A stretch of DNA of 41,033 nt from Bacillota bacterium. GTDB lineage: Bacteria > Bacillota > Dethiobacteria > DTU022 > UBA8154. The stretch spans positions 1-41,033 of the forward strand of contig JAUSPO010000104.1 in NCBI GenBank assembly GCA_030656575.1. Reading direction: 5' to 3'. The notes beneath the pieces were generated by a model. That model was given only the letters and a program-made list of their open reading frames with translations, was not told the origin of the DNA and searched no databases. The translations under genes were made by a program, and so were the position numbers. This document shows positions 3,764-35,643 of the stretch, in pieces (positions within the stretch are counted from its first letter, which is position 1; the number at the start of each line of letters is the position of its first letter).

Positions 3764-3793
3764 TTGACAAAATGAACCAACAGAAGTTATAAT
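3764..3793 (+). promoter_or_regulatory. sigma-A promoter of the carboxylate operon
   Basis: TTGACA at 3764-3769 and TATAAT at 3788-3793 are both perfect consensus hexamers, separated by 18 bp. Transcription should begin near 3800, leaving a leader of about 128 nt before the first gene. A palindrome covers the predicted start site, so this strong promoter is likely held off by a repressor. Confidence 0.85.
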
Positions 3794-3799
3794 TAAATA

Positions 3800-3813
3800 A
3801 ACAGACGTCTGTT
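3800..3813. promoter_or_regulatory. 14-bp perfect palindrome at +1, candidate TetR operator
   Basis: AACAGACGTCTGTT is its own reverse complement and begins 6 bp after the -10 box, over the predicted transcription start. This is a classic place for repressor binding. The TetR-family gene closing the same operon (14055-14663) is the obvious candidate ligand-responsive repressor. Sequence and position are seen; the regulator-site pairing is inferred. Confidence 0.65.
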
Positions 3814-3927
3814 AGTTTTTTTAAGTGGACTTTCATTTAGTTTTGTTTTTGTTAAAAGCATTTAAGTTTGATCCTAAAGGAGACTTGGCAGTTTTTAAGG
3901 GCTTAATGATCACGAGGAGGAAAGAGA

Positions 3928-5406
3928 ATGGCATACAAAGATTTACGTGAATTTATGGACTACTTAAAACATAAGGAAGAATTAATAAATATTGAAAGGG
4001 AATTGGAAAATGGCTATGAGATATCGGCACTTACCTGGGAATTGGCTGATAAGCTTGGACCGGCTGTGGTTTTTAGAGCCAAGGGTTATGATATTCCACT
4101 GGCAATGAACGTGCATGGTACCCTGAAGCGTAACTGTATGGCCCTGGAAATTGAACCGGGAGATAGTGACAAAGAAAATTTCCTGAAGATTCGCAACAGG
4201 ATTGCAGAAGTGATGGAAGATAAAAGCATGTGGAAGAAACCGGTTATCACCACTGATGCACCTTGTCAGGAAGTTGTAATGACCGGTGATGAAGTAAAAT
4301 TAAGTAAGTTACCCGTGTTTAAATGGAGCCCTTTGGATGGCGGACCATACATTACCATGACCAATATAATTACAAAGGATATGTCTAACTCCGCGAATGG
4401 ATTAAATACCGGGATGTACCGTGTAATGATTCATGACGATAGAACCACTGGTGTAATGTGCTGTGCTACTCAGGATATCGGTATTCATGTCGGTCTTGCC
4501 AGAGCTAAGGGGTTAAAGAAAATGCCACTGGCCATTGCCCTGGGTGTTGACCCTGTGATAAATATTGTTTCCACTACGAAAATGGCATCATATGTTGACG
4601 ATGAATTTGAGCTTGCAGGTGGCCTGCGTGGGGAACCTGTGGAGATGGTCAAATGTAAAACAATTGACCTTCTGGTACCATCTCATGCAGAAATAGTCTT
4701 AGAAGGAGAACTGAATATCGATCCTGCTAATGCACGTATTGAAGGTCCTTTTGCAGAATGGATGGGATATTATGAGGAACCCATGATGCTGCCGCAGTTC
4801 CATGTTACAGCAATTACCACAAGAAAAGATCCTGTCTATCAGGGTTGTATACTTGGACACCCAAATAACGAAGGCGAAATGATCAGAATGCCGGCTATTC
4901 AAGCCAACAATTTTAATGTGTTAAAGCGTACAGTAGTTGGTTTCAGGGAATTTTGGGCGCCTCATAAGTCCCGTGGTTATAAGGTCGTAGTTCAGATCAG
5001 CAAACGCTTTCCCGGATGGGGCAAGCAGGCTGGTTTGGCAGCCCTGAGCAGTGGCCAGGGAATGGCTGCTGCAAACTATGCCGTTGTCGTAGATGAAGAC
5101 ATCGATATTTTTGACCAGGAGGCTGTCGATTGGGCAATCGCTACCCGTATGGATCCCGCCAAGGATGTAATTATCATACCTGAGATGGGTGTTTACCCCC
5201 TAAATCCGGCGGCTTCCGGAAGAGAGGATGTAAATCCGGAGACGGGTTATACAGAATTCTCCTATATCGGCAAAATGGCCATTGATGCGACTAAAAAACT
5301 GGCATCAGAAAACCGTCGTCCCAGTGGTACCCCCGTCCTGCCTGATGAGGATGCCTTGGCCAAAATAAGAGCGAATTGGGATAGTTATGGGTTAAGTAAA
5401 TGGTAA
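3928..5406 (+). CDS. UbiD-family prenyl-FMN-dependent (de)carboxylase 1
   Basis: UbiD enzymes reversibly remove CO2 from aromatic or alpha,beta-unsaturated acids using prenylated FMN and Mn/K ions. At 492 residues it has a normal family length. The catalytic Glu pair is Glu272 and Glu277 in ARIEGPFAEWMGYY, with the expected spacing of five. Arg165 in NTGMYRVMIHDD is the likely partner Arg. The tail carries MAIDATKKL, also typical. GAGGAGG precedes the ATG. It is the first gene of the operon, followed 54 bp later by a PaaK-like ligase and then a second, quite different UbiD. No prFMN synthase (UbiX) is in the window, so the cofactor must come from elsewhere. The substrate is unknown; quinone precursor, phenolic acid, or ring carboxylation roles are all possible. 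Confidence 0.92.
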   Translation: MAYKDLREFMDYLKHKEELINIERELENGYEISALTWELADKLGPAVVFRAKGYDIPLAMNVHGTLKRNCMALEIEPGDSDKENFLKIRNRIAEVMEDKSMWKKPVITTDAPCQEVVMTGDEVKLSKLPVFKWSPLDGGPYITMTNIITKDMSNSANGLNTGMYRVMIHDDRTTGVMCCATQDIGIHVGLARAKGLKKMPLAIALGVDPVINIVSTTKMASYVDDEFELAGGLRGEPVEMVKCKTIDLLVPSHAEIVLEGELNIDPANARIEGPFAEWMGYYEEPMMLPQFHVTAITTRKDPVYQGCILGHPNNEGEMIRMPAIQANNFNVLKRTVVGFREFWAPHKSRGYKVVVQISKRFPGWGKQAGLAALSSGQGMAAANYAVVVDEDIDIFDQEAVDWAIATRMDPAKDVIIIPEMGVYPLNPAASGREDVNPETGYTEFSYIGKMAIDATKKLASENRRPSGTPVLPDEDALAKIRANWDSYGLSKW

Positions 5407-5460
5407 AAAATATATTCTGTAAACATTTTTAATAAACTGAAAGGATGAAGGTGGATATCA

Positions 5461-6813
5461 ATGAGTACAACAATTATTAACTATCCTCATCCACCAGATA
5501 GTTACACTATTGAAACGGCCAGCCGGGAGACTATTGCGGCTATCCAGAATCAGGGGTTTCAGCGTCTCCTGAATTCTGCCTGGCATAAAGTTCCTTTTTA
5601 CCGCCGCAGATGGCAGGCTGAGGGGATAGATATTTCTCGTATCAGGGATATGGAAGATATCCAAAAACTTCCAATAATTAGCAAGGAGGACCTGGAGCAA
5701 AGTTTACGGGATTTCCCTCCCTTTGGTGACTATCAGGGGGATTACCCCTGCTACAGAATTCAAGCCAGTTCAGGCTCCACAGGTTTCCCTAAGCCTATCT
5801 TCCATACGGCTCGCGATTGGGATATCATTACTAATTTTTGGGCAAGACGTTTGGCGGCGCAGGGTGTTCTTCAGGGAGATCTGGTGCAGATCGCTTTTAC
5901 TTATGCTCCATTTATTGTTGGATTTACTTCTACAGAGGGAGCATTAAAACTAGGAGCTACAATTATACCTGCCGGGAGCGGGGCAGTGACACCCAGTGAA
6001 AGGCAAGTAGAGATTGCTCACAGGTGGGGGACAACCGTTATCGGTACAACAGGAGCATATGCTCTCCGCCTTGCTGAAGTAGCTGAGGAGATGGGTTATG
6101 ATCTTAAGAAAGACTTTAAAATCAAAGCTATGTTTCATACAGCGGAATCTCTTACTGAAGAGATGAGGGATAGAATTGAGGGAAAATGGGGGTGTAAATC
6201 TTACAACAACTACGGTTCAGTTGAGACAGGAGCGCCCGCCTGGGAATGCCGGGAACAAAATGGTATGCATATCAACGAGGATGGTTATTTTTTTGAAGTT
6301 GTAGATCCTGTTTCAAAGCAGTCGCTTCCTGATGGAAAAGAGGGTGCACTTGTTATTACATCTCTTTTTAAAGAGGCCGCACCGGTGATCCGCTATATGA
6401 TTGGTGATATAGCTACAATTGTAAATACACCGTGCAAATGTGGGTGTACTTTCAGACGTATTATAAAAATTGCAGGGCGCACAGATGAAATGCTCAAGGT
6501 TAAAGGGATAACAGTATACCCAACTGCTGTTGAAGGGGCCTTACACCGTCTCCCCGAAATCGGCAATGAATATAGAATTGTTATTGACAAAGTAAATGAC
6601 CAGGATCATATTATTCTCCAGGTAGAAACGGATCTTCTTGGTGAGAAGCAAAAAGAGCTACACCAGAAGATAAAACATTCGTTAAAAACGCAGGTAGGCA
6701 TTCAAGTGCCAGTCGAATTTTTTTCTCCCGGTGAATTACAGAAAGAGTTAAACGTGGACCAGAGAATTAAATCGCGTCGAATATTGGATCGACGTAAAAA
6801 TAGTGGAGGGTAA
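5461..6813 (+). CDS. PaaK-like aryl/acyl-CoA ligase (adenylate-forming)
   Basis: Members of this family activate carboxylic acids, classically phenylacetate, to CoA thioesters with ATP. The 450-residue protein carries the P-loop SSGSTGFPKP (103-112), the aromatic-site motif YGSVETGAP (251-259), the ribose-binding Asp316 in RYMIGD, and the hinge region GRTDEMLKVKG (339-349). A CKCGC cluster at 325-329 resembles the metal-binding cysteines of some PaaK relatives. AAGGTGG precedes the ATG. It lies between two ubiD-like genes, so the product may be a CoA thioester used by, or generated after, one of the decarboxylases. The particular acid cannot be read from the sequence. Confidence 0.9.
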   Translation: MSTTIINYPHPPDSYTIETASRETIAAIQNQGFQRLLNSAWHKVPFYRRRWQAEGIDISRIRDMEDIQKLPIISKEDLEQSLRDFPPFGDYQGDYPCYRIQASSGSTGFPKPIFHTARDWDIITNFWARRLAAQGVLQGDLVQIAFTYAPFIVGFTSTEGALKLGATIIPAGSGAVTPSERQVEIAHRWGTTVIGTTGAYALRLAEVAEEMGYDLKKDFKIKAMFHTAESLTEEMRDRIEGKWGCKSYNNYGSVETGAPAWECREQNGMHINEDGYFFEVVDPVSKQSLPDGKEGALVITSLFKEAAPVIRYMIGDIATIVNTPCKCGCTFRRIIKIAGRTDEMLKVKGITVYPTAVEGALHRLPEIGNEYRIVIDKVNDQDHIILQVETDLLGEKQKELHQKIKHSLKTQVGIQVPVEFFSPGELQKELNVDQRIKSRRILDRRKNSGG

Positions 6814-6858
6814 TTACGATTAAAACAATTATTTTGCACGAAAAAGGGGAATTGAAAG

Positions 6859-8241
6859 ATGGGTAAAGACATGCGAACCTGGATAGGGCAGCTGGAAGCT
6901 GCAGGTGAATTACTGGAGATCAATAGTTCAGTAGATCCCTTAACAGAAATGGGAGCCTTGCTCTGGCAGTCCAGAGAGAAAGCTCTATTATTCAACAATT
7001 TAGAGGGTTTCCCCGGCTGGCGTTCCCTTGGGCAGGCACCTGCCAACTATTCCCATGCTGCCCTTGCATTTGAAACAGAGATGGAAAACCTGATTAGTAC
7101 CGTTGCTGGGAAGATGAAGAACAGATATATCCCTGAATCCGTGGAAACCGGTCCCGTAAAGGATGTAATACTTAAAGGAGAAGATGTTGATCTCTCCAAG
7201 TTTCCCATTCATATAGGAGGCACCAAGGATGCCGGCGCTTTTATCACGGCAGGGCTATGTATAACCAAAGACCCTGACACAGGCATAAGAAACATGAGTT
7301 TCCACAGGCTGCAGGTGAAAGGCCGCAACAAGACCGGGATTCTCCTTGTTCCCAGACATACCAGCATAAATCTGCAGAAATATGAAGCAAAAAATGAACC
7401 TATGCCCATAGCCATTTTCATCGGCCACCACCCCCTATACTATATGGCTGCTGCTACAACAGGTCCTTACGAGATGGATGAACTGGAGCTGGCCGGTGGG
7501 CTGCTGGGTGAGCCGGTAAAGACAGTTAAGTGCGAGACCATAGACATTGAAGTGCCCTTTGATGCAGAGATTGTTCTGGAAGGGCACGTATTACCAGGCT
7601 ACCGTGAAGATGAGGGTCCTTTTTCAGAATTCCAGGACTATTACATATCTGGAACCGGGCAAAACCCGGTAATCGAAATTCAGGCCATTACCATGCGTAA
7701 AGATGCTATTTTCAAAAACCTGCAAAACGGTTCAGAAATGGAGGGTTGTATTTTCCACAAAGTGCCAATGGGGGCGGCGATTTATGACCGAATCCGCTCA
7801 GTGGGCGGCTTTGCTGATATAAAAAATGTGCTCGTTTTGCCCGGTATTTTTGGAGTGGCAGTACAGATGACCCCGCGCTTTTACGGGGAGGCCAAAAACG
7901 TTCTCATGGCCGCTCTATCCGGAGAATATCTTCATCCTAAGGTAGCCATTGCTGTTGATGACGATGTAAATATCTTTAACTACTGGGAAATACTTTGGTC
8001 CATAAACACGCGCGTCAACCCGGATGAGGATATTATTATCTTGCCCGGCAGTAGGATCCACTCTATGGATCCCACGGCAAAGGAACTGTTTCCTCCAGGA
8101 ACCCCTTCCTGGCAGCGGGTAGGCGGAAAGATGATCATCGATGCCACCAAGCCTCCCGTTTCAGATCCTGAAGCCCGGGAAATTTTTGAACGTATTCTGC
8201 CCATGGGGCATGGAAAAGTGCACATAGAAAATTTTCTTTAG
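6859..8241 (+). CDS. UbiD-family prenyl-FMN-dependent (de)carboxylase 2
   Basis: A second UbiD homologue of 460 residues, clearly divergent from the first. The catalytic Glu pair is Glu252 and Glu257 in REDEGPFSEFQDYY, with Arg150 in NMSFHRLQ as likely partner. ELAGGLLGEP and the tail MIIDATKPP are shared family motifs. The conserved motifs suggest an active enzyme rather than a degenerate copy. AAGGGG lies before the ATG, 45 bp after the ligase stop. Having two UbiD paralogues in one operon suggests either two substrates or a heteromeric enzyme, as in multi-subunit phenolic-acid and phenylphosphate systems. That reading is inference. Confidence 0.92.
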   Translation: MGKDMRTWIGQLEAAGELLEINSSVDPLTEMGALLWQSREKALLFNNLEGFPGWRSLGQAPANYSHAALAFETEMENLISTVAGKMKNRYIPESVETGPVKDVILKGEDVDLSKFPIHIGGTKDAGAFITAGLCITKDPDTGIRNMSFHRLQVKGRNKTGILLVPRHTSINLQKYEAKNEPMPIAIFIGHHPLYYMAAATTGPYEMDELELAGGLLGEPVKTVKCETIDIEVPFDAEIVLEGHVLPGYREDEGPFSEFQDYYISGTGQNPVIEIQAITMRKDAIFKNLQNGSEMEGCIFHKVPMGAAIYDRIRSVGGFADIKNVLVLPGIFGVAVQMTPRFYGEAKNVLMAALSGEYLHPKVAIAVDDDVNIFNYWEILWSINTRVNPDEDIIILPGSRIHSMDPTAKELFPPGTPSWQRVGGKMIIDATKPPVSDPEAREIFERILPMGHGKVHIENFL

Positions 8242-8489
8242 TAAAAGTATAAAAAGGGATACGTAAGAAATGGTTGGAGTTGTTCTTAAAAAAATCTTCT
8301 GTATCTTTTGCAAGGGTGAATGTGAGGGTCACAGCTTAAACACAATGTATAGAAAATTTCAAATAGGAGTTATATTGCCCTATGTTTGCAAATTTTGAGA
8401 GGGGGGGGTGAACTTTAAGATAAAAAAAATACAAGGAACAGTCGAAGTATTTAATTTTTAATTTTTAATAAAAAAAGGGGGAATTACTA

Positions 8490-9533
8490 ATGTTTTCTCA
8501 AAAAATTCGCTATGTTGTCTGGTTTTTGGTGATAGTTTTATTCTCATCTTTAATTCTCACAGGTTGTGGCCAGAAAGTTGTGGAACCGGAGGTTAAGCCT
8601 CCTGCCGATACTGAAGGACCAGTTCCTGAGCCCGACAAGCCGGAGCCTACCAGAATTGATATCCGTTGGGGGACTATTACAGCAGGTGGGGCCTGGCAGG
8701 TTATTGGCGGTGCTATGCTGGAAGATATCAAAAAAGCCAATTCAAATATTACCGGGTCTATTCTACCCAGTACTACTTCAGGTAATGTCGTGGGAGTACA
8801 TCAAGGCCAGTTTGAAGTAGCTTTCTGCTTAACGGATACTACTGCTGAAGCCTGGGCGGGAGAAGGTTATTTTAAGGATATGGGTGAGATTAGGGATATC
8901 CGAAACCTGGCCGCTTTTTATCCCCAGACCACCCATATTGTCGTCTGGTCCGATTCAGATATTAAATCCATAGAAGATTTAAAAGGGAAAAGAGTTAGCC
9001 CGGGAGCCAAGGGACTTTCTTGCGATGTACAATCCCAGCGTTTGTTAAATTTGTATGGTATGTCCTATGATGACATGTCGGTGCAGTTTCTTTCTTTTAA
9101 TGACGCGGCTCAGCAGATGGTTGACCGGCATCTTGATGCATTGCTGTTTGTTACCGTACCTTTTCCCTTTGCCCCTGTGATCAATGTAGGTTCTCAAAGA
9201 TCCATCAGCTTGTTGTCTATTCCTGAGGATAAGTTGGCGGAATTAGCAAAATTTCAAGGAGTCGAGCCATATACCCTGCCGGCAGGGCTTTATGAAGGAG
9301 TCGATTATCCGGTGAAAGGGATAGCCGTCCGGGCACATATCATTGTGCGTGACGATTTCCCTGAAGATGTAGCTTATAGTATCGTGAAAACAATAGCTGA
9401 AAAATTTGATAGCTACCCTGATGTTCTAAAGTCCATGTCATATGCCCGGTTAGAGGATATGGCTATGGATACTGGTATTCCCATGCATCCTGGCGCAGAA
9501 CGCTATTACCGTGAGCGTGGATGGATGAAGTAA
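8490..9533 (+). CDS. TAXI-type TRAP transporter solute-binding lipoprotein
   Basis: Extracytoplasmic substrate receptor of a TRAP transporter of the TAXI subclass, which takes up carboxylates using an ion gradient. A lipoprotein signal peptide is clear: basic start, hydrophobic core, and lipobox LTGC with Cys26 as the lipidated residue. A Pro/Glu-rich linker (about 28-55) follows, then the binding domain with WGTITAGGAWQVIGGAM, the IEDLKGKRVSPGAKG hinge segment and the DALLFVTVPFPFAPV region. At 347 residues it has normal length. AAAGGGGG precedes the ATG. A 248-bp gap separates it from ubiD 2, so it may have an additional promoter, though none is obvious. Confidence 0.92.
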   Translation: MFSQKIRYVVWFLVIVLFSSLILTGCGQKVVEPEVKPPADTEGPVPEPDKPEPTRIDIRWGTITAGGAWQVIGGAMLEDIKKANSNITGSILPSTTSGNVVGVHQGQFEVAFCLTDTTAEAWAGEGYFKDMGEIRDIRNLAAFYPQTTHIVVWSDSDIKSIEDLKGKRVSPGAKGLSCDVQSQRLLNLYGMSYDDMSVQFLSFNDAAQQMVDRHLDALLFVTVPFPFAPVINVGSQRSISLLSIPEDKLAELAKFQGVEPYTLPAGLYEGVDYPVKGIAVRAHIIVRDDFPEDVAYSIVKTIAEKFDSYPDVLKSMSYARLEDMAMDTGIPMHPGAERYYRERGWMK

Positions 9534-9565
9534 TTTATTAAACCTCAAAAGATAATTGCTGATCG

Positions 9566-9596
9566 CTTCTGCACCCCTGTATCAGGGGTGCAGAAG
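9566..9596 (+). terminator. 14-bp perfect stem between receptor and permease
   Basis: CTTCTGCACCCCTG (9566-9579) pairs completely with CAGGGGTGCAGAAG (9583-9596) around a 3-base TAT loop. The T-rich stretch after it starts late (about 9602), so it is either a leaky terminator or a stem that protects the 3' end of the receptor mRNA. Either would favour excess receptor over permease. Confidence 0.7.
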
Positions 9597-9697
9597 TATT
9601 GCTCTATTCTTTTTGTATCCTTTGTTCCTGATATTTTCTTTAAAAAGTTTGGTTGGGGGTTTATTGAGGTTTTAACAACAAAAAGGGAGGTTTAACG

Positions 9698-11590
9698 TTG
9701 AATTCAAATAACCGCCCGTATTATTGGGATAGCCAAAAGTTTTATACTTGTGTAGTCGCATCGGTTGGAGTTACTTTGGCATTATTTCATATCTACACTG
9801 GTCTCTGGGGAAGTTTTGATGCCCTTAAGCAGAGAGCCATACACCTTGGCTTGGGTTTAATAATGGTATTCATTATTTACCCTATATCTAAAAAAGGAAT
9901 TTCACGTTTGCATTTTTTAGACTATCTCCTGGCTCTTGCTTCTATTGTTGTTACAGCTTATCCGCTGTTTCGTTACGATTGGATAACAGCAGAAAGATTT
10001 AGCTTGATTACACCATTGAGCACGTTGGAAAAGGTTTTAGCAGTATTAGCGATTTTGCTGATCCTGGAGGCTGTTCGCAGGATAGTGGGCAATAGTCTCC
10101 TGACTGTGGTCCTGTGTTTTCTGGCATACATTTTTGTTGGTCCTTTTTTGCCAGGGGCATTTCGTTCAGTAACTATAACCTGGACACAGTTTCTCGATTT
10201 CCAGTATCTTTCCACAGCAGGTATATTTGGCATTCCTTTGGGAGTGTCAGCAAACGAAATCGCTCTTTTTATTGTCTTTGCGGCAATATTAATGAAGAGC
10301 GGGGGATCTCTGTTAATGAATAACCTTGCGGTTTCTCTCGCCGGACGATCCCCGGGAGGCCCGGCCAAGGTCGCAGTGTTGGCCAGCGGCCTGATGGGTA
10401 CTATTTCAGGCAGCGGAACAGCTAATGTAATGACCACGGGCAGTGTAACTATTCCTATGATGAAAAAAATAGGTTATCCTGCACATTTTGCTGGAGCGGT
10501 TGAAGCGGTTGCTTCCACAGGAGGCCAGATAATGCCTCCGGTTATGGGTGCTGCAGCCTTTGTTATGTCAGCATTTAGTGGTATCCCGTACATTCAAATT
10601 CTGAAGTTTGCTATAATCCCCGCATTGCTTTTTTATTGGGGCTTACTCGTTTCTGTGCATCTCGAAGCTTTACGTCTTAACCTATCCGGGGTAGAACCAG
10701 AAATAAGTGCTAAACAAACTATTAAAGATTATGGGCATATGTTAATTCCGATTCTGGTATTGTTATTTATATTGTTTAGTGGTTATACTCCACGTATGGC
10801 TGCTGGGGCTGGTGTAATCTCGGCAATATTGTTCAGCCAGTTACGTTCAACGACCCGATTAGGCCTGAAGGATTTACTGGAAGCACTCATTAATGGAGCC
10901 AGGGGAATGCTTGTTGTTATTGTTGCTACTTCGGCTGCTGGTATAATAATTGGGAGTATTGAACTTACTGGTTCCGGCCATCGCATTGGTACTCTTTTTA
11001 TGAGTTTATCTGGAGGGTATCAAATACCTGCTTTAATTTTAGCCATGTTGTTAGCTATTATTCTTGGAATGGGTATGCCTACTTCAGCGGCTTATGTTAT
11101 TCAGGCTGCCACCGTTATACCTGCTCTCCTTTATTTTGGCATTGAACCTTATGTAGCCCATATGTTTTGTTTTTACTTTGCATGCCTGTCCTTAATTACT
11201 CCTCCGGTTGCCATTACCTCTTATGCTGCCGCAGGTTTAGCTGGAGCGAATATCTGGAAGACGGGATGGACTGCTTTCCGACTAGGTTTAGCAGGCTATA
11301 TCGTTCCTTTTATGTTTGTTTACGGGCCTGCCTTGTTATTAATAGGTTCTCCAGCTAGAATTTTATTGGTAACTGTTACGGCTTTTTTAGGAGTATTTTG
11401 TTTGGCCGTTGCAAGTGGTGGTTATTTGATCCGAAAACTGGTGTTGCTTGAAAGAGCTGTGATGATAATTGCCGCTTTATTCCTGATTGCTCCACTATGG
11501 CATACTATATTTCCAGGACTGATTCTAATGCTTTTGCTGGGTGGTAAATTATACTTGGAGAAAAAACGTTCAGGTTACGAAACAGTATAA
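9698..11590 (+). CDS. TRAP transporter fused DctQ-DctM permease
   Basis: Membrane component of the TAXI-TRAP system. The 630 residues comprise an N-terminal four-helix DctQ-like part (about 1-150) fused to a large DctM permease, the usual TAXI architecture. Family motifs include GLMGTISGSGTANVMTTG, ASTGGQIMPPVMGAAAF and GMGMPTSAAYVIQA, followed by SLITPPVAITSYAAAGLAGAN. A C-terminal hydrophobic extension also fits this subclass. Translation starts at TTG 9698 behind AAAGGGAGG. Together with the upstream receptor it should import the carboxylate processed by the neighbouring enzymes. Confidence 0.93.
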   Translation: MNSNNRPYYWDSQKFYTCVVASVGVTLALFHIYTGLWGSFDALKQRAIHLGLGLIMVFIIYPISKKGISRLHFLDYLLALASIVVTAYPLFRYDWITAERFSLITPLSTLEKVLAVLAILLILEAVRRIVGNSLLTVVLCFLAYIFVGPFLPGAFRSVTITWTQFLDFQYLSTAGIFGIPLGVSANEIALFIVFAAILMKSGGSLLMNNLAVSLAGRSPGGPAKVAVLASGLMGTISGSGTANVMTTGSVTIPMMKKIGYPAHFAGAVEAVASTGGQIMPPVMGAAAFVMSAFSGIPYIQILKFAIIPALLFYWGLLVSVHLEALRLNLSGVEPEISAKQTIKDYGHMLIPILVLLFILFSGYTPRMAAGAGVISAILFSQLRSTTRLGLKDLLEALINGARGMLVVIVATSAAGIIIGSIELTGSGHRIGTLFMSLSGGYQIPALILAMLLAIILGMGMPTSAAYVIQAATVIPALLYFGIEPYVAHMFCFYFACLSLITPPVAITSYAAAGLAGANIWKTGWTAFRLGLAGYIVPFMFVYGPALLLIGSPARILLVTVTAFLGVFCLAVASGGYLIRKLVLLERAVMIIAALFLIAPLWHTIFPGLILMLLLGGKLYLEKKRSGYETV

Positions 11591-11644
11591 CTAACGATAC
11601 CAAACTCTATTTCTTTTTAAATCGAAAAGGAGGGAAGAGATATT

Positions 11645-13324
11645 GTGAGAGTAGAGTCATGTGATGTTTTATGCCTGGGCGGAGGGGGAGCGGGAATTAC
11701 AGCTGCTGTAACAGCGGCAGAATACGGAGCTAATGTAATTTTGGTTTCAAAAGAGCCCCTTGGATATGGAGATACGCGTATTTCTATGGGGCTGACATCT
11801 TTTCCCGGGGTGGTTGAAGGTGACAGCTTGGAGCTTTTCTACCAGGATCTTTTGAAAGGGGGTGAGTATCTCAACGATCCCGAACTTGCATGGATCATGG
11901 CGGAGATGAATCCATTTGGTGTACAATTGCTGGAAAGTTATGGCCATTTGTTTCAGAGGAACAATAAAGGGCTAATCGGCAGTGATGTTGCCTATCTAAT
12001 AGGTGGTCATTCTTTACCTCGTTCTATAGGTTGCCCTCCCGGCGGGGGTATCAGTATGGGGAATGCCTTGCGGGCAGGAGCGGCAAGGTCAAATATCAGG
12101 GTTTTTGAAGAAGTCCTTGCATCTAGTCTGTTGTGCAGCGGGGAACATGTCGCAGGAGCTGTTTGCTTCGACATATGCCGGGGTGAAGTTTTTCTGATCC
12201 GTGCTGGAGCAGTAATCATAGCTACCGGTGGAGCAGGATGGCTTTATTATCCGCATACTGACTGTAACTCTGGTGTAAACGGTGACGGTTACGCTCTTGC
12301 TTATAACGTAGGGGCAAAATTAATTGACATGGAGCAAGTTCAATTCATGCCATTTGGGCTAACTCATCCCGCTTCCGTGTGTGGTGTGTATGTCGGCGAG
12401 CCAAGCTTGGCCGCACCGAAGGGACTGATTCGTAATAGAAATGGAGAGGTAATTCTTTCAGGGTTGGGGACGATGACCCGTGCTCAGGTTACTAATGCCA
12501 TGGCAGTGGAACTCTCCAGGGGTGGAGGCACTGAATACGGAGGGCTGCTTCTCGATCTGGAACCCAACCTTGCTTTACCAGAGGGGAGACAGATGTGGAA
12601 TGTGAGAAAAGAAAGGGGCCAGCTAAATATTGTCCGCTTTGCCTATGGCGAAGATGCTTATCGCTGGAAAAAGCCCTGGGATGTAACTCCCACCGCCCAT
12701 TACTTTATGGGGGGGATAATGGTTAATACTTCGGGACAAAGCAGTGTACCCGGGTTATATGCGGCTGGGCAGGCTATGGGAGGCATTCACGGTGCCAACC
12801 GCTTAGGATCGGTTTCCCTTGCTGAGCTTTTTGTCTTTGGATATATAGCCGGTAAAGCTGCAGCTAAAGAGTGTATAGGTCAGAAGCCTCTTGATTGTTC
12901 CCAGGGACAAGAAGAAGCTGCTGGGAATATTAAAAGTCTGAGTGGCCGAAAAGGTTTATATTCACCCCTTGTATTACAACGTCGACTTCAGAAAACAATG
13001 TGGGAAAATGTTGGTATAGCAAGGGTTGAAAAGGGTCTGCGCACCGCCTTGAAGGAGATAGAAGAAATTGAAGAGACTTGTGAAAATTTAAAAATTGCAT
13101 CCCAAATATCATATAACAGGGATATAGTACACACCATTGAAATAAAACATATGTTGACAGTTGCCAAGTTAATTACTGAAGCAGCTTTAATGCGCTGTGA
13201 GACGAGAGGTGCTCACCTTAGGCTGGATTTTCCGGAAAAGGATGAAAAGAACTGGCGGCGAAATATTATTGTATTCAAGGAAAATAACAATTTTAAGATT
13301 CAATCAGAGGCGGTGAAGTTCTGA
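11645..13324 (+). CDS. fumarate-reductase-like FAD flavoprotein subunit
   Basis: This flavoprotein belongs to the fumarate reductase/succinate dehydrogenase superfamily and should transfer electrons between FAD and a small unsaturated acid. The dinucleotide fold is CLGGGGAG (10-17). Catalytic-type residues present are Arg279 (TRAQVTNA), His352 (TAHYFMGG) and Arg386 (HGANRLGS). The usual QFHPT motif is replaced by QFMPF at 233-237, so the His normally contacting fumarate is missing. The covalent-FAD His is also absent (GDTRISMG at 42-49), implying non-covalent FAD. No signal peptide is present, so the protein is cytosolic. GTG start behind AAAGGAGGG. It overlaps the Fe-S subunit by one base. 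The substrate is probably not fumarate. Confidence 0.9.
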   Translation: MRVESCDVLCLGGGGAGITAAVTAAEYGANVILVSKEPLGYGDTRISMGLTSFPGVVEGDSLELFYQDLLKGGEYLNDPELAWIMAEMNPFGVQLLESYGHLFQRNNKGLIGSDVAYLIGGHSLPRSIGCPPGGGISMGNALRAGAARSNIRVFEEVLASSLLCSGEHVAGAVCFDICRGEVFLIRAGAVIIATGGAGWLYYPHTDCNSGVNGDGYALAYNVGAKLIDMEQVQFMPFGLTHPASVCGVYVGEPSLAAPKGLIRNRNGEVILSGLGTMTRAQVTNAMAVELSRGGGTEYGGLLLDLEPNLALPEGRQMWNVRKERGQLNIVRFAYGEDAYRWKKPWDVTPTAHYFMGGIMVNTSGQSSVPGLYAAGQAMGGIHGANRLGSVSLAELFVFGYIAGKAAAKECIGQKPLDCSQGQEEAAGNIKSLSGRKGLYSPLVLQRRLQKTMWENVGIARVEKGLRTALKEIEEIEETCENLKIASQISYNRDIVHTIEIKHMLTVAKLITEAALMRCETRGAHLRLDFPEKDEKNWRRNIIVFKENNNFKIQSEAVKF

Positions 13325-13986
13325 TGTGCAGAGAAGTGTCAATAGAGGTTTTTCGATATGACCCCGGAACCGATAGTTCACCTTCATGGCGTAAATATGA
13401 AATACCCTTTGAAGAAAAGAATACCGTTCTAGGAGCTTTACTATTTATCCAGGAGAAACTGGATCCCACCCTTGCATTTCGTTATGGGTGCAGGTATAAT
13501 AGATGCGGTCTCTGTTCACTGGAGGTAAACGGGAAACCCCGTATGTCCTGCCATTCCTATCTGGAGGAGGGTATGCGCCTGGGACCATTGTCAAAACTCC
13601 CTTTAATAAGGGATTTAGTAGTAGATCGTAAAGGCCTGTTTCAGGATTTGGCTAAATATGAGCTTTTCATCGAAAAAAATACAGACAATACAGTAATATT
13701 TGAGCCTGAGCAGGGAGCCAAGTTGCGTGGTTGTGCAGAATGTCTTTCTTGTCTTGCCGCATGTCCTAAATATAGTTTCGGCAGTGATGATTTCGGCGGC
13801 CCTTTCCTTTTTGTAAAGCTTGCACAGCTTCATTTTGATCCACGTGATAAAAAGGACCGTATAGAGCAGGCACACTCTCTTGGAATTAATCTCTGCCAGG
13901 ATTGTAAGAAATGTTACTGTCCTAACGGTATTAACATTTACCGGGATGCAATTAGTACTTTACTGAAAGTAAAGAAGAATGACTAA
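13324..13986 (+). CDS. fumarate-reductase-like iron-sulfur subunit
   Basis: This electron-transfer partner of the flavoprotein belongs to the SdhB/FrdB family. It has a [2Fe-2S] ferredoxin domain with Cys56, Cys61, Cys64 and Cys76 (C-x4-C-x2-C-x11-C), then a helical domain with Cys137, Cys140, Cys143 and Cys147. A third cysteine set sits at 191, 194, 197 and 199, tighter than the usual third-cluster spacing. At 220 residues it is slightly short for the family. The ATG overlaps the flavoprotein TGA (TGATG), so translation is coupled. No membrane-anchor gene follows, so electrons probably come from a soluble carrier or an unlinked membrane partner. Confidence 0.9.
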   Translation: MCREVSIEVFRYDPGTDSSPSWRKYEIPFEEKNTVLGALLFIQEKLDPTLAFRYGCRYNRCGLCSLEVNGKPRMSCHSYLEEGMRLGPLSKLPLIRDLVVDRKGLFQDLAKYELFIEKNTDNTVIFEPEQGAKLRGCAECLSCLAACPKYSFGSDDFGGPFLFVKLAQLHFDPRDKKDRIEQAHSLGINLCQDCKKCYCPNGINIYRDAISTLLKVKKND

Positions 13987-14054
13987 TTCAAATTATTAAT
14001 AAATGACTGTCTGAAATTTTTTAAATAAGCATTTGTTTTTTAGGAGGCTTAAAA

Positions 14055-14663
14055 ATGGGTACATATAAAACAAACAATCTGGAAATAGAAGGGGGCAAGC
14101 GGGAAGAAATTTTAGATGCAGCAGCAAAATTGTTCAAAAAAAAGGGTTATATAGGTACGTCTATACGAGATATAACATCAGCAGTTGGAATTCTTCGGGG
14201 AAGTATCTATTCGCACTTTGAAAGCAAAGAACAAATATTTCTTAAAATTTTACACCGGGGTGTAGATTCATTATTAAATGGTGCTGAAGATATTATTGCA
14301 AAGCAATTATCTCCTATAGATACGCTGCGTGATTTGATACAAAATCATCTTATGCATATAATGGAAAATAATAATTCACTTGTGATATTTATGCAAGATG
14401 GCGAAAATATTCAAGCAGAACAAATAACACATTATATGGAAAAAAGAGATCGTTATGAAAATATTTTAAGAAATGTCTTGGAAGAGGGCATTAAAGAGGG
14501 CGTATTTCCAGAGTTAAACATACGTTTTACAGGTTTTGCACTCTTAGGAATGTGTAACTGGGTTATTCATTGGTTTGATCCAAAAGGTCCAAATAGTCCA
14601 GAGGAAATTTCTAAATATATGAGCTCTTTAATATGTGACCAATTTCTTGTCAACCACAGTTAG
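14055..14663 (+). CDS. TetR/AcrR-family transcriptional regulator
   Basis: A ligand-responsive repressor. The N-terminal helix-turn-helix domain (about 15-62) has the family consensus: REEILDAAAKLFKKKGY, then TSIRDITSAVG and GSIYSHFESKEQIF. The C-terminal ligand-binding domain (about 75-202) resembles the group found with fatty-acid and CoA-thioester regulators. At 202 residues the length is normal. GGAGG precedes the ATG. As the last gene of the operon, 68 bp after the Fe-S subunit, it is the natural candidate to bind the palindrome at 3800-3813. The inducer may be the imported acid or its CoA ester. Local base composition is more AT-rich than the enzymes before it. Confidence 0.92.
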   Translation: MGTYKTNNLEIEGGKREEILDAAAKLFKKKGYIGTSIRDITSAVGILRGSIYSHFESKEQIFLKILHRGVDSLLNGAEDIIAKQLSPIDTLRDLIQNHLMHIMENNNSLVIFMQDGENIQAEQITHYMEKRDRYENILRNVLEEGIKEGVFPELNIRFTGFALLGMCNWVIHWFDPKGPNSPEEISKYMSSLICDQFLVNHS

Positions 14664-15533: not shown

Positions 15534-15682
15534 CTGTCCCCGTGTCTATGGAGAAAACTGTCCCCTGACACCAGCGATGGGCTGTCCTCTTAGACAACGG
15601 AACCGTCCCCTTGTCTATCTGTCAGCGGATAATGAGGTGTCAATAGAACCGTCCCCTGACACCGTCGTCCCCTGACACCGTC
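15534..15682. repeat. cluster of degenerate GTCCCC-type intergenic repeats
   Basis: This noncoding gap holds several copies of a short unit: CTGTCCCCGTGTCTAT (15534-15549), ACTGTCCCCTGACACC (15557-15572), GGAACCGTCCCCTTGTCT (15599-15616), GAACCGTCCCCTGACACC (15646-15663) and GTCCCCTGACACCGTC (15667-15682). The same core reappears near glmS, AOR, the aldolase and the CDF gene. No coding frame was seen across 15251-15762. Confidence 0.8.
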
Positions 15683-30457: not shown

Positions 30458-30486
30458 TTGACTGCAATAGTGGTATGACTTATAAT
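30458..30486 (+). promoter_or_regulatory. promoter of the fluoride riboswitch transcript
   Basis: TTGACT at 30458-30463 and TATAAT at 30481-30486 are separated by 17 bp. The predicted start falls at about 30493, exactly where the aptamer begins. Confidence 0.85.
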
Positions 30487-30493
30487 TAAAAAA

Positions 30494-30552
30494 GGCGATG
30501 GAGCTCGCCAGGGCACCCCCCGAACCGCAGAAATTGCTAATAGCTCCTACCA
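30494..30552 (+). promoter_or_regulatory. fluoride riboswitch (crcB motif)
   Basis: GGCGATGG begins P1, which closes with CGCC at about 30506-30509. AACCGCAGAAATTGCTAAT and AGCTCCTACC follow as in the crcB consensus. The pseudoknot GGAGCT (30500-30505) with AGCTCC (30542-30547) is a perfect match. Fluoride binding stabilises this fold and prevents the adjacent terminator, switching on the antiporter. Confidence 0.95.
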
Positions 30553-30580
30553 AGCATTATTTGGTAGGAGCTATTTTATT
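30539..30580 (+). terminator. terminator of the fluoride riboswitch
   Basis: AATAGCTCCTACC (30539-30551) pairs perfectly with GGTAGGAGCTATT (30563-30575), with T-rich sequence following. The 5' arm includes the aptamer's pseudoknot strand, so the two structures compete. Confidence 0.93.
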
Positions 30581-30600: not shown

Positions 30601-31830
30601 TTGTTATTTAGTCTGTTAATTATCTTCTTTTTAGGGCTGGGTGCAAAGTTTCTCTTTGAGAAAATAAAACTTCCTGGCTTGGTAGGATTGGTGCTGGTGG
30701 GTGTTTTCACCGGCCCTTTCGTTCTGGATATTCTTGAGCCTGACCTGCTTGTTCTCTCAACAGAAATCCGCCTGCTGGCCTTAATTATCATCTTGCTTCG
30801 TGCTGGTTTAGGCCTTGATCGTCAAATATTACGGCGAATCGGGGGAGCAGCAATCAAAATGAGCACTATCCCCGGGCTGTTCGAAGGTGGAACCGTAATG
30901 GTTCTATCTCGCTTTCTTTTGGATTTTTCCTGGATACAGGGAGGAATGTTGGGTTTTATCATTGCAGCCGTTTCACCTGCCGTTGTAGTACCATCTATGT
31001 TGGAGCTGAGAGATCGTGGTTTGGGCATGGATAAGAACATACCTATTTTAGTCCTGGCAGGGGCATCAATCGATGACGTTTTTGCCATCACCTTTTTTTC
31101 TGTATTTCTAGGCATTGCAGGCGGAGCTGCGGCCAAAATCTCACCGTTCATCAACTTTGCAATCGTTCCTCTTGAGATTATGGGAGGTATCCTACTTGGA
31201 TTAACAGTTGGTTATCTGCTTGTACTGCTCTTTAATCGTTATCCGCTACCTCGTGTGGAGCAATTGCTGCTTGTAACGGGAGCAGGAATTGTTGTAACCT
31301 TAATTGGCCAGGCTGCTTCACTGGCAGGATTGCTTGCAGTCATGAGTCTTGGATTTATTCTTCTTGAAAAAGGCAGGGATTATGTTACTCAATTAGAAGA
31401 AAGCCTTAATCACCTTTGGTTGGCTTCATCACTCTTTCTCTTTATTCTCATCGGTGCTGCAGTAAATATACAGGTTGCCTGGCGGGCAGGTGCACTGGGA
31501 ATACTGATTATTGCAGTTGGCTTAGCTGCCCGTTCTTTAGGTGTCTTACTTGCTACTCGGCGCTCCGGACTAACTTGGAACGAACAAAAGTTTTGCGCCA
31601 TTGCATACTTACCTAAGGCTACTGTGCAGGCCGCCATCGGAGGGGTACCATTGGCCATGGGCATCCCCGGTGGAGAAATTATGCTTGCCATTGCAGTCCT
31701 ATCAATAATTATTACGGCACCCATTGGAGCCATAGCTATCATACGATTGGCCCCCTGTTTGCTTAATCAGTGTGAATTAGCGGAAGGAGGGAAATGGAAA
31801 GTTGAAAGTAAGGGAAATGATGACAACTAA
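30601..31830 (+). CDS. CPA-family cation/proton antiporter under fluoride control
   Basis: Monovalent cation:proton antiporter with about 11-12 membrane helices over 409 residues. The paired acidic site is Asp158-Asp159 in AGASIDDVFAI, the DD type. Starts at TTG 30601 behind AGGAGGG. Antiporters are one of the gene classes repeatedly found behind fluoride riboswitches, besides CrcB/Fluc and CLC-F, so a role in fluoride or associated acid stress is likely. It overlaps the CBS-domain gene by 29 bp. The exported ion cannot be read from the sequence. Confidence 0.9.
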   Translation: MLFSLLIIFFLGLGAKFLFEKIKLPGLVGLVLVGVFTGPFVLDILEPDLLVLSTEIRLLALIIILLRAGLGLDRQILRRIGGAAIKMSTIPGLFEGGTVMVLSRFLLDFSWIQGGMLGFIIAAVSPAVVVPSMLELRDRGLGMDKNIPILVLAGASIDDVFAITFFSVFLGIAGGAAAKISPFINFAIVPLEIMGGILLGLTVGYLLVLLFNRYPLPRVEQLLLVTGAGIVVTLIGQAASLAGLLAVMSLGFILLEKGRDYVTQLEESLNHLWLASSLFLFILIGAAVNIQVAWRAGALGILIIAVGLAARSLGVLLATRRSGLTWNEQKFCAIAYLPKATVQAAIGGVPLAMGIPGGEIMLAIAVLSIIITAPIGAIAIIRLAPCLLNQCELAEGGKWKVESKGNDDN

Positions 31831-34368: not shown

Positions 34369-35643
34369 ATGTTAAATATTAAAAAGCGTAAAAAGACAAT
34401 TATTTTTGTTATTTCTTTATTACTTCTCATTGCGGCCATCCTGGCCATTAGAATCCTTGCAGCAAGAGGAAACAGCAGTGCTGCCAATGTTCCATACACT
34501 GTCCTTTCTAAAACTGAACTGATCAACAGTATCAGTGTATCGGGAACTATCGAGAGCGCAAATGCTCAAAATGTTTATTCCACCCTGACCTATCCAGTAG
34601 AAGAGATCTATGTGTCCGTTGGAGATCAGGTAGCGATGGGAGATCTGCTGGCCAAACTGGATACCGCCTCACTGGAACTGGACATTGCTCAACAGAAGGC
34701 CAGGATGCTGAATAATAGCGGAATGAATGGCGAACTGATTAATGCTGAATCAGCTCTCAAAACGGCTGGGGTAGACCTTCAAACCAAAATGACAACTTAT
34801 GAAGACAACAAAATCTTATTTGAATCCGGTTATATTTCCGCTCAGGAACTGAGTCAGTCGGAAACAAATTATTCGCTTTCAGCAGAGGCCTATGATAAGG
34901 CTCTCTCCTCTCTGGATGCTACAAAGAATAGAGTTGAACAGGAAAATAATACCCAACGAATAGCACTGCAAAAACTCGAGAAAAATCTTGCCGATTCGAT
35001 CATAAAAGCTCCGTTAGACGGTATGGTGACGGCTGTAAATGCAAAGGTAGGAGCTTCGGGCAACGGTCTTTTGTTTGTGATCGAGGATACGGAAAACCTG
35101 ATTATTACTACCTATGTGAAAGAGTATGATATCGGCCAGGTTCAGCAAGGGCAGATGGTCACCATCAGGTCTGATGCCACCGGTAATTCTGTCTTTCGTG
35201 GAAAGATAATCAAAATTGCGCCCACATCTGCTAAAAGCGCAACGGGAGAAACGATCGTCTCCAGTACGGTAGAATTCGAAACCCAAATTGCTGTCTTAGA
35301 CCATGGCGCTGGACTTAAAATTGGCATGAATACGCGTCTTAATATCATTTTAGAAGAAAGGGCCGATCTCTATGTGGTGCCCTATGACGCTGTTACCGTC
35401 AATGCCGATGGTCAGAGTATCGTTTATGTTATCACTGAAGAGCAGGAAAAACAGATTGTCAAAGAACTTGTGGTCGAAACAGGCATGGAGACGGATTTCT
35501 ATACAGAGGTGTCAGGGGAAGGGCTTTCTGATGGTGTCATGGTCGTAAATGACGCGATAAGCGTAAATGCGGGTGATATTGTCGGCCGGGATGTCGGCGG
35601 TTCAAACCGTGGGTTGATGCCTGGGATGAGGCCGCCACGATAA
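34369..35643 (+). CDS. MacA-like periplasmic adaptor (HlyD/RND family)
   Basis: This membrane-fusion protein links the MacB-type ABC transporter to the cell exterior or an outer-membrane channel. An N-terminal membrane anchor (about 9-28) is followed by a split biotinyl-lipoyl domain (VEEIYVSVGDQVAMGDLLAKLD and IIKAPLDGMVTAVNAKVG) around a helical hairpin (about 105-205), then beta-barrel segments. The C-terminus ends with a Gly/Pro/Arg-rich tail. At 424 residues it has normal length. The nearest Shine-Dalgarno AGGAGGG lies 15-16 bases before the ATG, a long spacing. First gene of a four-gene export operon. Confidence 0.9.
   Translation: MLNIKKRKKTIIFVISLLLLIAAILAIRILAARGNSSAANVPYTVLSKTELINSISVSGTIESANAQNVYSTLTYPVEEIYVSVGDQVAMGDLLAKLDTASLELDIAQQKARMLNNSGMNGELINAESALKTAGVDLQTKMTTYEDNKILFESGYISAQELSQSETNYSLSAEAYDKALSSLDATKNRVEQENNTQRIALQKLEKNLADSIIKAPLDGMVTAVNAKVGASGNGLLFVIEDTENLIITTYVKEYDIGQVQQGQMVTIRSDATGNSVFRGKIIKIAPTSAKSATGETIVSSTVEFETQIAVLDHGAGLKIGMNTRLNIILEERADLYVVPYDAVTVNADGQSIVYVITEEQEKQIVKELVVETGMETDFYTEVSGEGLSDGVMVVNDAISVNAGDIVGRDVGGSNRGLMPGMRPPR

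What the first reader, a model, noticed from the sequence alone, without database searches (positions are those of the whole stretch)
3764..14663. TetR-gated operon joining two UbiDs, a PaaK-like ligase, TAXI-TRAP uptake and a fumarate-reductase-like pair
All genes for import, CoA activation, (de)carboxylation and flavin-dependent reduction of one carboxylate appear in a single regulated transcript. I know of UbiD plus ligase gene sets and of flavin-dependent enoate reductases, but not of this combination with TAXI-TRAP and a soluble SdhA/SdhB-type pair. It could be an undescribed anaerobic route for an aromatic or unsaturated acid, possibly using it as an electron acceptor.
Basis: partly seen in the sequence, partly recalled or inferred. 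Interest (0 to 1): 0.72.

Follow-up and report, generated by a model that had tools for sequence, protein, structure and literature searches.

The report
Regulated operon for anaerobic aromatic-acid use
This is a real, conserved gene set with its own on/off switch that an oxygen-avoiding bacterium probably uses to import, decarboxylate and activate an aromatic acid; most of it matches a known kind of pathway, but its soluble fumarate-reductase-like enzyme pair belongs to a widespread, apparently uncharacterised group with a changed active site.

Summary
In detail: eight genes on the + strand, ubiD1-paaK-ubiD2-TAXI receptor-fused TRAP permease-sdhA-like-sdhB-like-tetR (3928-14663), behind a perfect TTGACA-18-TATAAT promoter (3764-3793). 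The order recurs completely in one relative and up to the contig end in a second. A 14-bp palindrome just downstream of the promoter is identical in all three and unique in each genome. The looser motif AACANNCGNNTGTT finds seven distinct sites in all loci held, all in front of ubiD1 or tetR, including a rearranged cluster in another family. A dedicated TetR regulon is well supported. The genome also encodes benzoyl-CoA-pathway and phenylphosphate-carboxylase markers, so an aromatic-acid catabolic role is likely. TAXI-TRAP uptake with CoA activation and UbiD decarboxylation is already known for anaerobic phthalate use, so that combination is not new. The SdhA/SdhB-like pair is the unusual part: it keeps three catalytic/carboxylate residues, lacks two fumarate-binding residues and the flavin-linking histidine, has an extra cysteine at the [3Fe-4S] site and no membrane anchor. 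I read it as a soluble 2-enoate reductase. In the other family an acyl-CoA dehydrogenase takes its place. The substrate is unknown.

The parts
3764..3793 (+). promoter, TTGACA-18-TATAAT
   Evidence: 12 of 12 consensus, best of the scan; also present in G010 and G001 sequence with one change in the -10 hexamer context visible by eye
3800..3813 (.). putative TetR operator AACAGACGTCTGTT (perfect palindrome)
   Evidence: identical in three genomes and unique in each even with 1 mismatch; motif AACANNCGNNTGTT expected 0.03 times in the window by chance
3928..5406 (+). ubiD1, prFMN-dependent (de)carboxylase
   Evidence: Pfam UbiD/UbiD_N/UbiD_C, TIGR00148 over cut-off; R165, E272, E277 invariant; 87, 86 and 78% identical relatives in G010, G001, G301
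5461..6813 (+). PaaK-like AMP-forming aryl/acyl-CoA ligase
   Evidence: below the PaaK equivalog cut-off (271.8 vs 646.3)
6859..8241 (+). ubiD2, UbiD nearest in PDB to 6h6v/6h6x (PtHmfF)
   Evidence: HmfF furan-specificity histidine aligns with Gly
8490..9533 (+). TAXI-family TRAP solute-binding lipoprotein
   Evidence: TIGR02122 and NMT1_3; PDB TAXI hits
9564..9594 (+). conserved RNA hairpin between receptor and permease genes, without a T tract
   Evidence: stem kept in three genomes, about -28 kcal/mol, with one T-A to G-C compensatory pair in G010
9698..11590 (+). fused TRAP permease
   Evidence: TIGR02123, DctM
11645..13324 (+). SdhA/FrdA-like flavoprotein of an altered-pocket subfamily
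   Evidence: pocket table; tree
13324..13986 (+). SdhB/FrdB-like iron-sulfur subunit with an extra cysteine (C194)
   Evidence: cysteine columns
14055..14663 (+). tetR (TetR_N + TetR_C_24)
   Evidence: relatives in G010 (inverted) and G301, 72 and 40% identical

Best explanation
A TetR-repressed catabolic operon of an anaerobic, aromatic-degrading Dethiobacteraceae-type bacterium. The TAXI-TRAP system imports an aromatic carboxylic acid. The PaaK-like ligase makes its CoA thioester, and the two prFMN-dependent UbiDs remove carboxyl group(s) so that the product enters the benzoyl-CoA pathway encoded elsewhere in the genome. The soluble FrdAB-like pair reduces a carboxylate-conjugated C=C bond of the substrate or an intermediate (a 2-enoate reductase working like urocanate reductase, not fumarate reductase), with electrons from a low-potential soluble carrier through one [2Fe-2S] and two [4Fe-4S] clusters. 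TetR binds AACANNCGNNTGTT at the promoter until an inducer, probably the acid or its CoA ester, releases it. Shown by sequence: gene content, conserved order, promoter, operator motif, active-site residues, genome background. Inferred: substrate, reaction direction and order, electron carrier, cluster types, inducer.
For: Conserved order in G010 and, as far as its contig goes, G001. Operator identical in three genomes, unique in each; in all loci held the motif occurs only in front of ubiD1 or tetR, including three exact sites in the rearranged G301 cluster. Both UbiDs keep R-E-E. Own genome over curated cut-offs: oah 568.4 (464.45), had 479.3 (338.65), BzdQ 441.6 (380.2), phenylphosphate carboxylase alpha 620.6 (564.6) and beta 743 (468.95); UbiX-type ORFs by sequence reading at L033:12700-13308 and L035:1422-2018. 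Published Dethiobacter MAG with a complete benzoate pathway (PMC8115662). FrdA-like: FrdA R287, H355, R390 kept; H232 to Met/Ile and T244 to Gly, the pattern that in urocanate reductase keeps the carboxylate clamp and loses fumarate (PMC7921117). Extra Cys in every subfamily member compared. In G301 the same ligase/TAXI/TRAP/TetR/UbiD1 set carries, next to the permease, an acyl-CoA dehydrogenase (best model acryloyl-CoA reductase, 352 bits, cut-off 640) and no FrdAB.
Against: No substrate is shown. Stand-alone FrdAB-like pairs with the same pocket change lie outside any UbiD context in other Bacillota, so the pocket is not a special adaptation to this operon. The ubiD2-TAXI and TAXI-permease gaps (248 and 164 bp) would allow separate transcripts. 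The benzoyl-CoA genes are on other contigs of the same MAG (binning caveat) and were not sought in G010 or G001. G301 lacks ubiD2 on the contig seen.
Confidence: 0.5

Rival explanations
1. It is specifically a phthalate-isomer (or other aromatic dicarboxylate) operon: the ligase makes the aroyl-CoA, one UbiD decarboxylates it to benzoyl-CoA, and FrdAB is a side activity.
For: TAXI-TRAP plus CoA activation plus UbiD is the published o-phthalate architecture (PMC13040137); PaaK-like ligase plus UbiD for isophthalate (PMC9516798); benzoyl-CoA pathway markers in the genome.
Against: Phthaloyl-CoA decarboxylase structures are the weakest of 40 PDB hits for both UbiDs (79 and 84 bits vs 201 and 244 for the best). 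Gives no role to a second UbiD or to FrdAB.
Confidence: 0.15
2. The FrdAB-like pair is not a pathway enzyme but a redox partner, for example oxidising prFMNH2 to mature the UbiDs without oxygen, or passing electrons to another enzyme.
For: sdhAB-like pairs sit beside different aromatic enzymes: another UbiD (L029), a molybdenum-hydroxylase-type trio plus PaaK plus TRAP receptor (L030); oxidative maturation is a known UbiD requirement (abstract of PMC13040415).
Against: Three substrate-carboxylate/proton-donor residues of fumarate reductases are kept throughout the subfamily; many members have no UbiD nearby.
Confidence: 0.13
3. The imported enoic acid serves as terminal electron acceptor.
For: A related reductase is used that way elsewhere (UrdA, abstract of PMC10882135).
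Against: No membrane anchor gene in the operon, no signal peptide visible in the sequence, and the three-Cys [3Fe-4S] pattern is replaced by a four-Cys pattern; ligase and UbiDs would be superfluous.
Confidence: 0.12
4. The UbiDs run as carboxylases, activating an unsubstituted or hydroxylated arene.
For: UbiDs are reversible and carboxylating UbiDs are proposed in anaerobes (PMC8988006); the genome has phenylphosphate carboxylase.
Against: A dedicated solute-binding-protein carboxylate importer in the same operon points to an acid as input; the carboxylase set of this genome is elsewhere (C90).
Confidence: 0.08

Closest known systems
Anaerobic o-phthalate clusters of denitrifiers (Azoarcus, Aromatoleum, Thauera)
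   Same: TAXI-TRAP uptake, CoA activation and UbiD decarboxylation encoded together, feeding benzoyl-CoA (PMC13040137)
   Different: those use a CoA transferase and carry UbiX and phthaloyl-CoA decarboxylase; here a PaaK-like ligase, two UbiDs not close to that enzyme, and FrdAB
Isophthalate activation in Syntrophorhabdus aromaticivorans (IPCL + UbiD)
   Same: PaaK-type ligase with UbiD in a fermenting anaerobe (PMC9516798)
   Different: no FrdAB mentioned in the passages read; no TRAP uptake system described there
HmfF, 2,5-furandicarboxylate decarboxylase (6h6v/6h6x)
   Same: closest solved relative of UbiD2 over its whole length
   Different: specificity His (PtHmfF 296) aligns with Gly in UbiD2
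Urocanate reductase UrdA
   Same: keeps the carboxylate contacts Arg/His/Arg and replaces the fumarate-specific His
   Different: single polypeptide with FMN domain; here a two-subunit FAD plus Fe-S enzyme
Fumarate reductase TfrAB (CoM/CoB type) and E. coli FrdAB
   Same: TfrA/TfrB are the best curated models and FrdAB among the best structures for the pair
   Different: below TfrA/TfrB cut-offs, no C-terminal TfrB part, altered pocket, extra Cys, no membrane anchor

Membership tests
UbiD family | UbiD domains with R-E-E catalytic network | tested here: met
   TIGR00148 over cut-off; R165, E272, E277 invariant in both UbiD groups
TAXI-TRAP transporter | TAXI receptor plus fused TRAP permease | tested here: met
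   TIGR02122 and TIGR02123 over cut-off
Anaerobic phthalate operon | UbiD closely related to phthaloyl-CoA decarboxylase | tested here: not met
   8oz5/8pmk weakest of the 40 hits listed for each UbiD
Anaerobic phthalate operon | UbiX in the cluster | tested here: not met
   no UbiX in 3928-14663; UbiX-type ORFs on other contigs; adjacent to ubiD1 in G301
Phenylacetate-CoA ligase PaaK (equivalog) | score over TIGR02155 cut-off | tested here: not met
   271.8 vs 646.3 bits
HmfF furandicarboxylate decarboxylase | specificity histidine | tested here: not met
   PtHmfF H296 aligns with Gly; role of the residue (H297 in HmfF) in PMC7976604
Fumarate reductase / succinate dehydrogenase | R287, H355, R390 (E. 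coli FrdA) | tested here: met
   all three kept
Fumarate reductase / succinate dehydrogenase | fumarate residues H232 and T244 | tested here: not met
   Met and Gly here; hydrophobic and Gly throughout the subfamily
Fumarate reductase / succinate dehydrogenase | flavin-linking His45, membrane anchor, three-Cys [3Fe-4S] site | tested here: not met
   Asp at His45; no anchor ORF in the operon; extra Cys194
CoM/CoB fumarate reductase TfrAB | score over curated cut-offs and C-terminal TfrB part | tested here: not met
   378.4 vs 718 and 173.1 vs 385; matches only TfrB positions 3-214 of 488
2-enoate reductase (function) | reduction of a 2-enoate | not testable with these tools
   inferred from retained residues and the UrdA parallel

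The most novel reading that the evidence does not exclude
The FrdAB-like pair founds a widespread, uncharacterised subfamily of soluble, low-potential, two-[4Fe-4S] 2-enoate reductases, and this operon is a new anaerobic route in which such an enzyme works with two UbiDs on one aromatic acid.
Probability: 0.3. Interest if true: 0.68.

Novelty: new variant of a known kind. Interest (0 to 1): 0.48.

Why it matters
It extends UbiD/TAXI-TRAP aromatic-acid operons to Dethiobacteraceae-type Bacillota, supplies a ready operator for testing inducers, and singles out a common 'succinate dehydrogenase/fumarate reductase' annotation that is probably wrong: the subfamily members compared, from several lineages, share a pocket unable to bind fumarate in the usual way and a changed cluster-ligand pattern.

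Tried and rejected
UbiD2 as furandicarboxylate decarboxylase (specificity His absent). UbiDs as phthaloyl-CoA decarboxylases or as phenylphosphate carboxylase alpha/beta (scores far below cut-off or weakest hits). Pair as fumarate reductase or TfrAB. TAXI-permease hairpin as a terminator: no T tract, not reported by the scan. tRNA-Tyr called inside sdhA (12269-12359): taken as a false positive. Literature searches for a UbiD plus fumarate-reductase operon gave no description of this combination in the titles and abstracts returned; only a few papers were read. A search for the FrdB Val-to-Cys cluster conversion found no paper with that term, so that point rests on memory. No structure prediction was run.

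Full report
What is there. The window is a whole contig (G000:C33) of a 2.99-Mb genome in 195 contigs, 99% complete. ORF and domain searches confirm eight co-directional genes. Gaps are 54, 45, 248, 164, 54, -1 and 68 bp. The promoter at 3764-3793 matches the sigma-70 consensus at 12 of 12 positions.

Is it more than chance? A search of 98 genomes of the class found ubiD1 and ubiD2 relatives at high identity only in G010 and G001. G010 (contig QZJM01000077, titled Dethiobacter sp. SURF_39) has the whole series at 71-88% identity; G001 (its sdhA contig is titled Desulfovibrio sp. DeMMO6_36, although the tool places the genome in the same family as ours) has ubiD1-paaK-ubiD2-TAXI and then runs off the contig inside the permease; its sdhAB lie on another contig behind a different UbiD. 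The LemA gene upstream is also shared. tetR is inverted in G010.

Regulation. AACAGACGTCTGTT starts 6 bp after the -10 hexamer and is identical in the three genomes, while the surrounding DNA differs. It is unique in each genome, allowing one mismatch. In G301, a genome of another family with a rearranged cluster (paaK-TAXI-TRAP-acyl-CoA dehydrogenase-tetR, then ubiD1-ubiX), exact matches to AACANNCGNNTGTT lie in front of tetR (one) and ubiD1 (two, plus one with a mismatch); G010 has AACAAGCGTTTGTT in front of tetR. All exact matches in the 106 loci held at that call reduce to these seven sites. The motif was partly derived from these sites, so the count is not an independent test; the uniqueness and conservation of the window's palindrome are. 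The window's own tetR lacks an exact copy upstream. There are no binding data.

Decarboxylases and ligase. Both UbiDs keep the R-E-E residues and are 32% identical to each other. UbiD1 is nearest to a phenolic acid decarboxylase and E. coli UbiD, UbiD2 to HmfF, but neither reaches a specific equivalog. A second ubiD2 copy in G001 and distant ones in G453 and G465 lie beside genes that I read as tripartite-tricarboxylate-type transporters (unannotated ORFs), so this UbiD tends to travel with solute-binding-protein uptake systems. The ligase is PaaK-like but below the PaaK cut-off.

The FrdAB-like pair. It falls in a subfamily of 17 rows with 100/100 support, away from E. coli FrdA and NadB; the four aromatic-context members (window, G010, G001, G017) form a 100/99 clade. 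Against E. coli FrdA it keeps R287, H355 and R390, and replaces H45, H232 and T244 (literature numbering, one less than the gene position for the pocket residues). Urocanate reductase keeps the same three contacts and lacks the same histidine, and does not reduce fumarate (PMC7921117). The FrdB-like subunit has an additional cysteine in all subfamily rows compared where E. coli FrdB has Val208 of the gene product; from memory, the Val-to-Cys change at this place in E. coli converts the [3Fe-4S] to a [4Fe-4S] cluster. No anchor subunit is encoded in the operon. So I infer a soluble, non-quinone-linked 2-enoate reductase. Against a pathway-specific role: relatives with the same pocket stand alone in other Bacillota.

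Genome background. Over curated cut-offs: oah, had, BzdQ and phenylphosphate carboxylase alpha and beta; 4-hydroxybenzoyl-CoA reductase alpha-like at 659 bits, below its cut-off of 994.55. Ten UbiDs in all, several beside TAXI/TRAP genes. The organism therefore looks like an anaerobic aromatic degrader, in line with a published Dethiobacter MAG carrying a complete benzoate pathway (PMC8115662).

What it is. A regulated peripheral aromatic-acid operon, a variant of the TAXI-TRAP plus CoA-activation plus UbiD arrangement known for phthalate (PMC13040137), with an unusual FrdAB-like reductase. In G301 an acyl-CoA dehydrogenase whose best model is acryloyl-CoA reductase sits beside the permease and FrdAB is absent, which fits a C=C redox step but is a single instance.

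Noticed in passing
G000:C90:37401-38411 (L032:16734-18358): A second sdhAB-like copy in the same genome whose sdhA lacks its N-terminal half; looks like a pseudogene.
   Followed up: partly
L033:15963-19258 (G000:C90 end): Phenylphosphate carboxylase beta and alpha over cut-off with a HAD-type protein between them; suggests phenol carboxylation.
   Followed up: partly
L088 (G000:C57): Benzoyl-CoA pathway block: had, oah, BzdQ and a second BcrAD-type ATPase, with a PaaK-like ligase.
   Followed up: partly
L106 (G301:C73): Related cluster in another family: paaK, TAXI, TRAP, acyl-CoA dehydrogenase, tetR, ubiD1, ubiX, flanked by repeated LysM-like ORFs at both contig ends.
   Followed up: yes
L030 (G017:C108): sdhAB-like pair between a molybdenum-hydroxylase-type trio and a PaaK-like ligase plus TRAP receptor, behind an aldehyde-ferredoxin-oxidoreductase-type fragment and a ferredoxin-like subunit (reading of sequence).
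   Followed up: partly
window 9564-9594: Conserved hairpin with a compensatory change between TAXI receptor and permease genes; perhaps a message stabiliser that favours the receptor.
   Followed up: partly
window 30485-30556: Fluoride riboswitch (Rfam RF01734, 50 bits) upstream of a transporter-like ORF at 30601.
   Followed up: no
window 15558-15679: Three copies within 122 bases of a CCGTCCCCTGACACC-like repeat; a fourth on the other strand at 35508.
   Followed up: no
L090:9457-12048 (G000:C53): Fused protein with two HGD-D domains (double-cubane-reductase-like) next to TAXI/TRAP genes.
   Followed up: no
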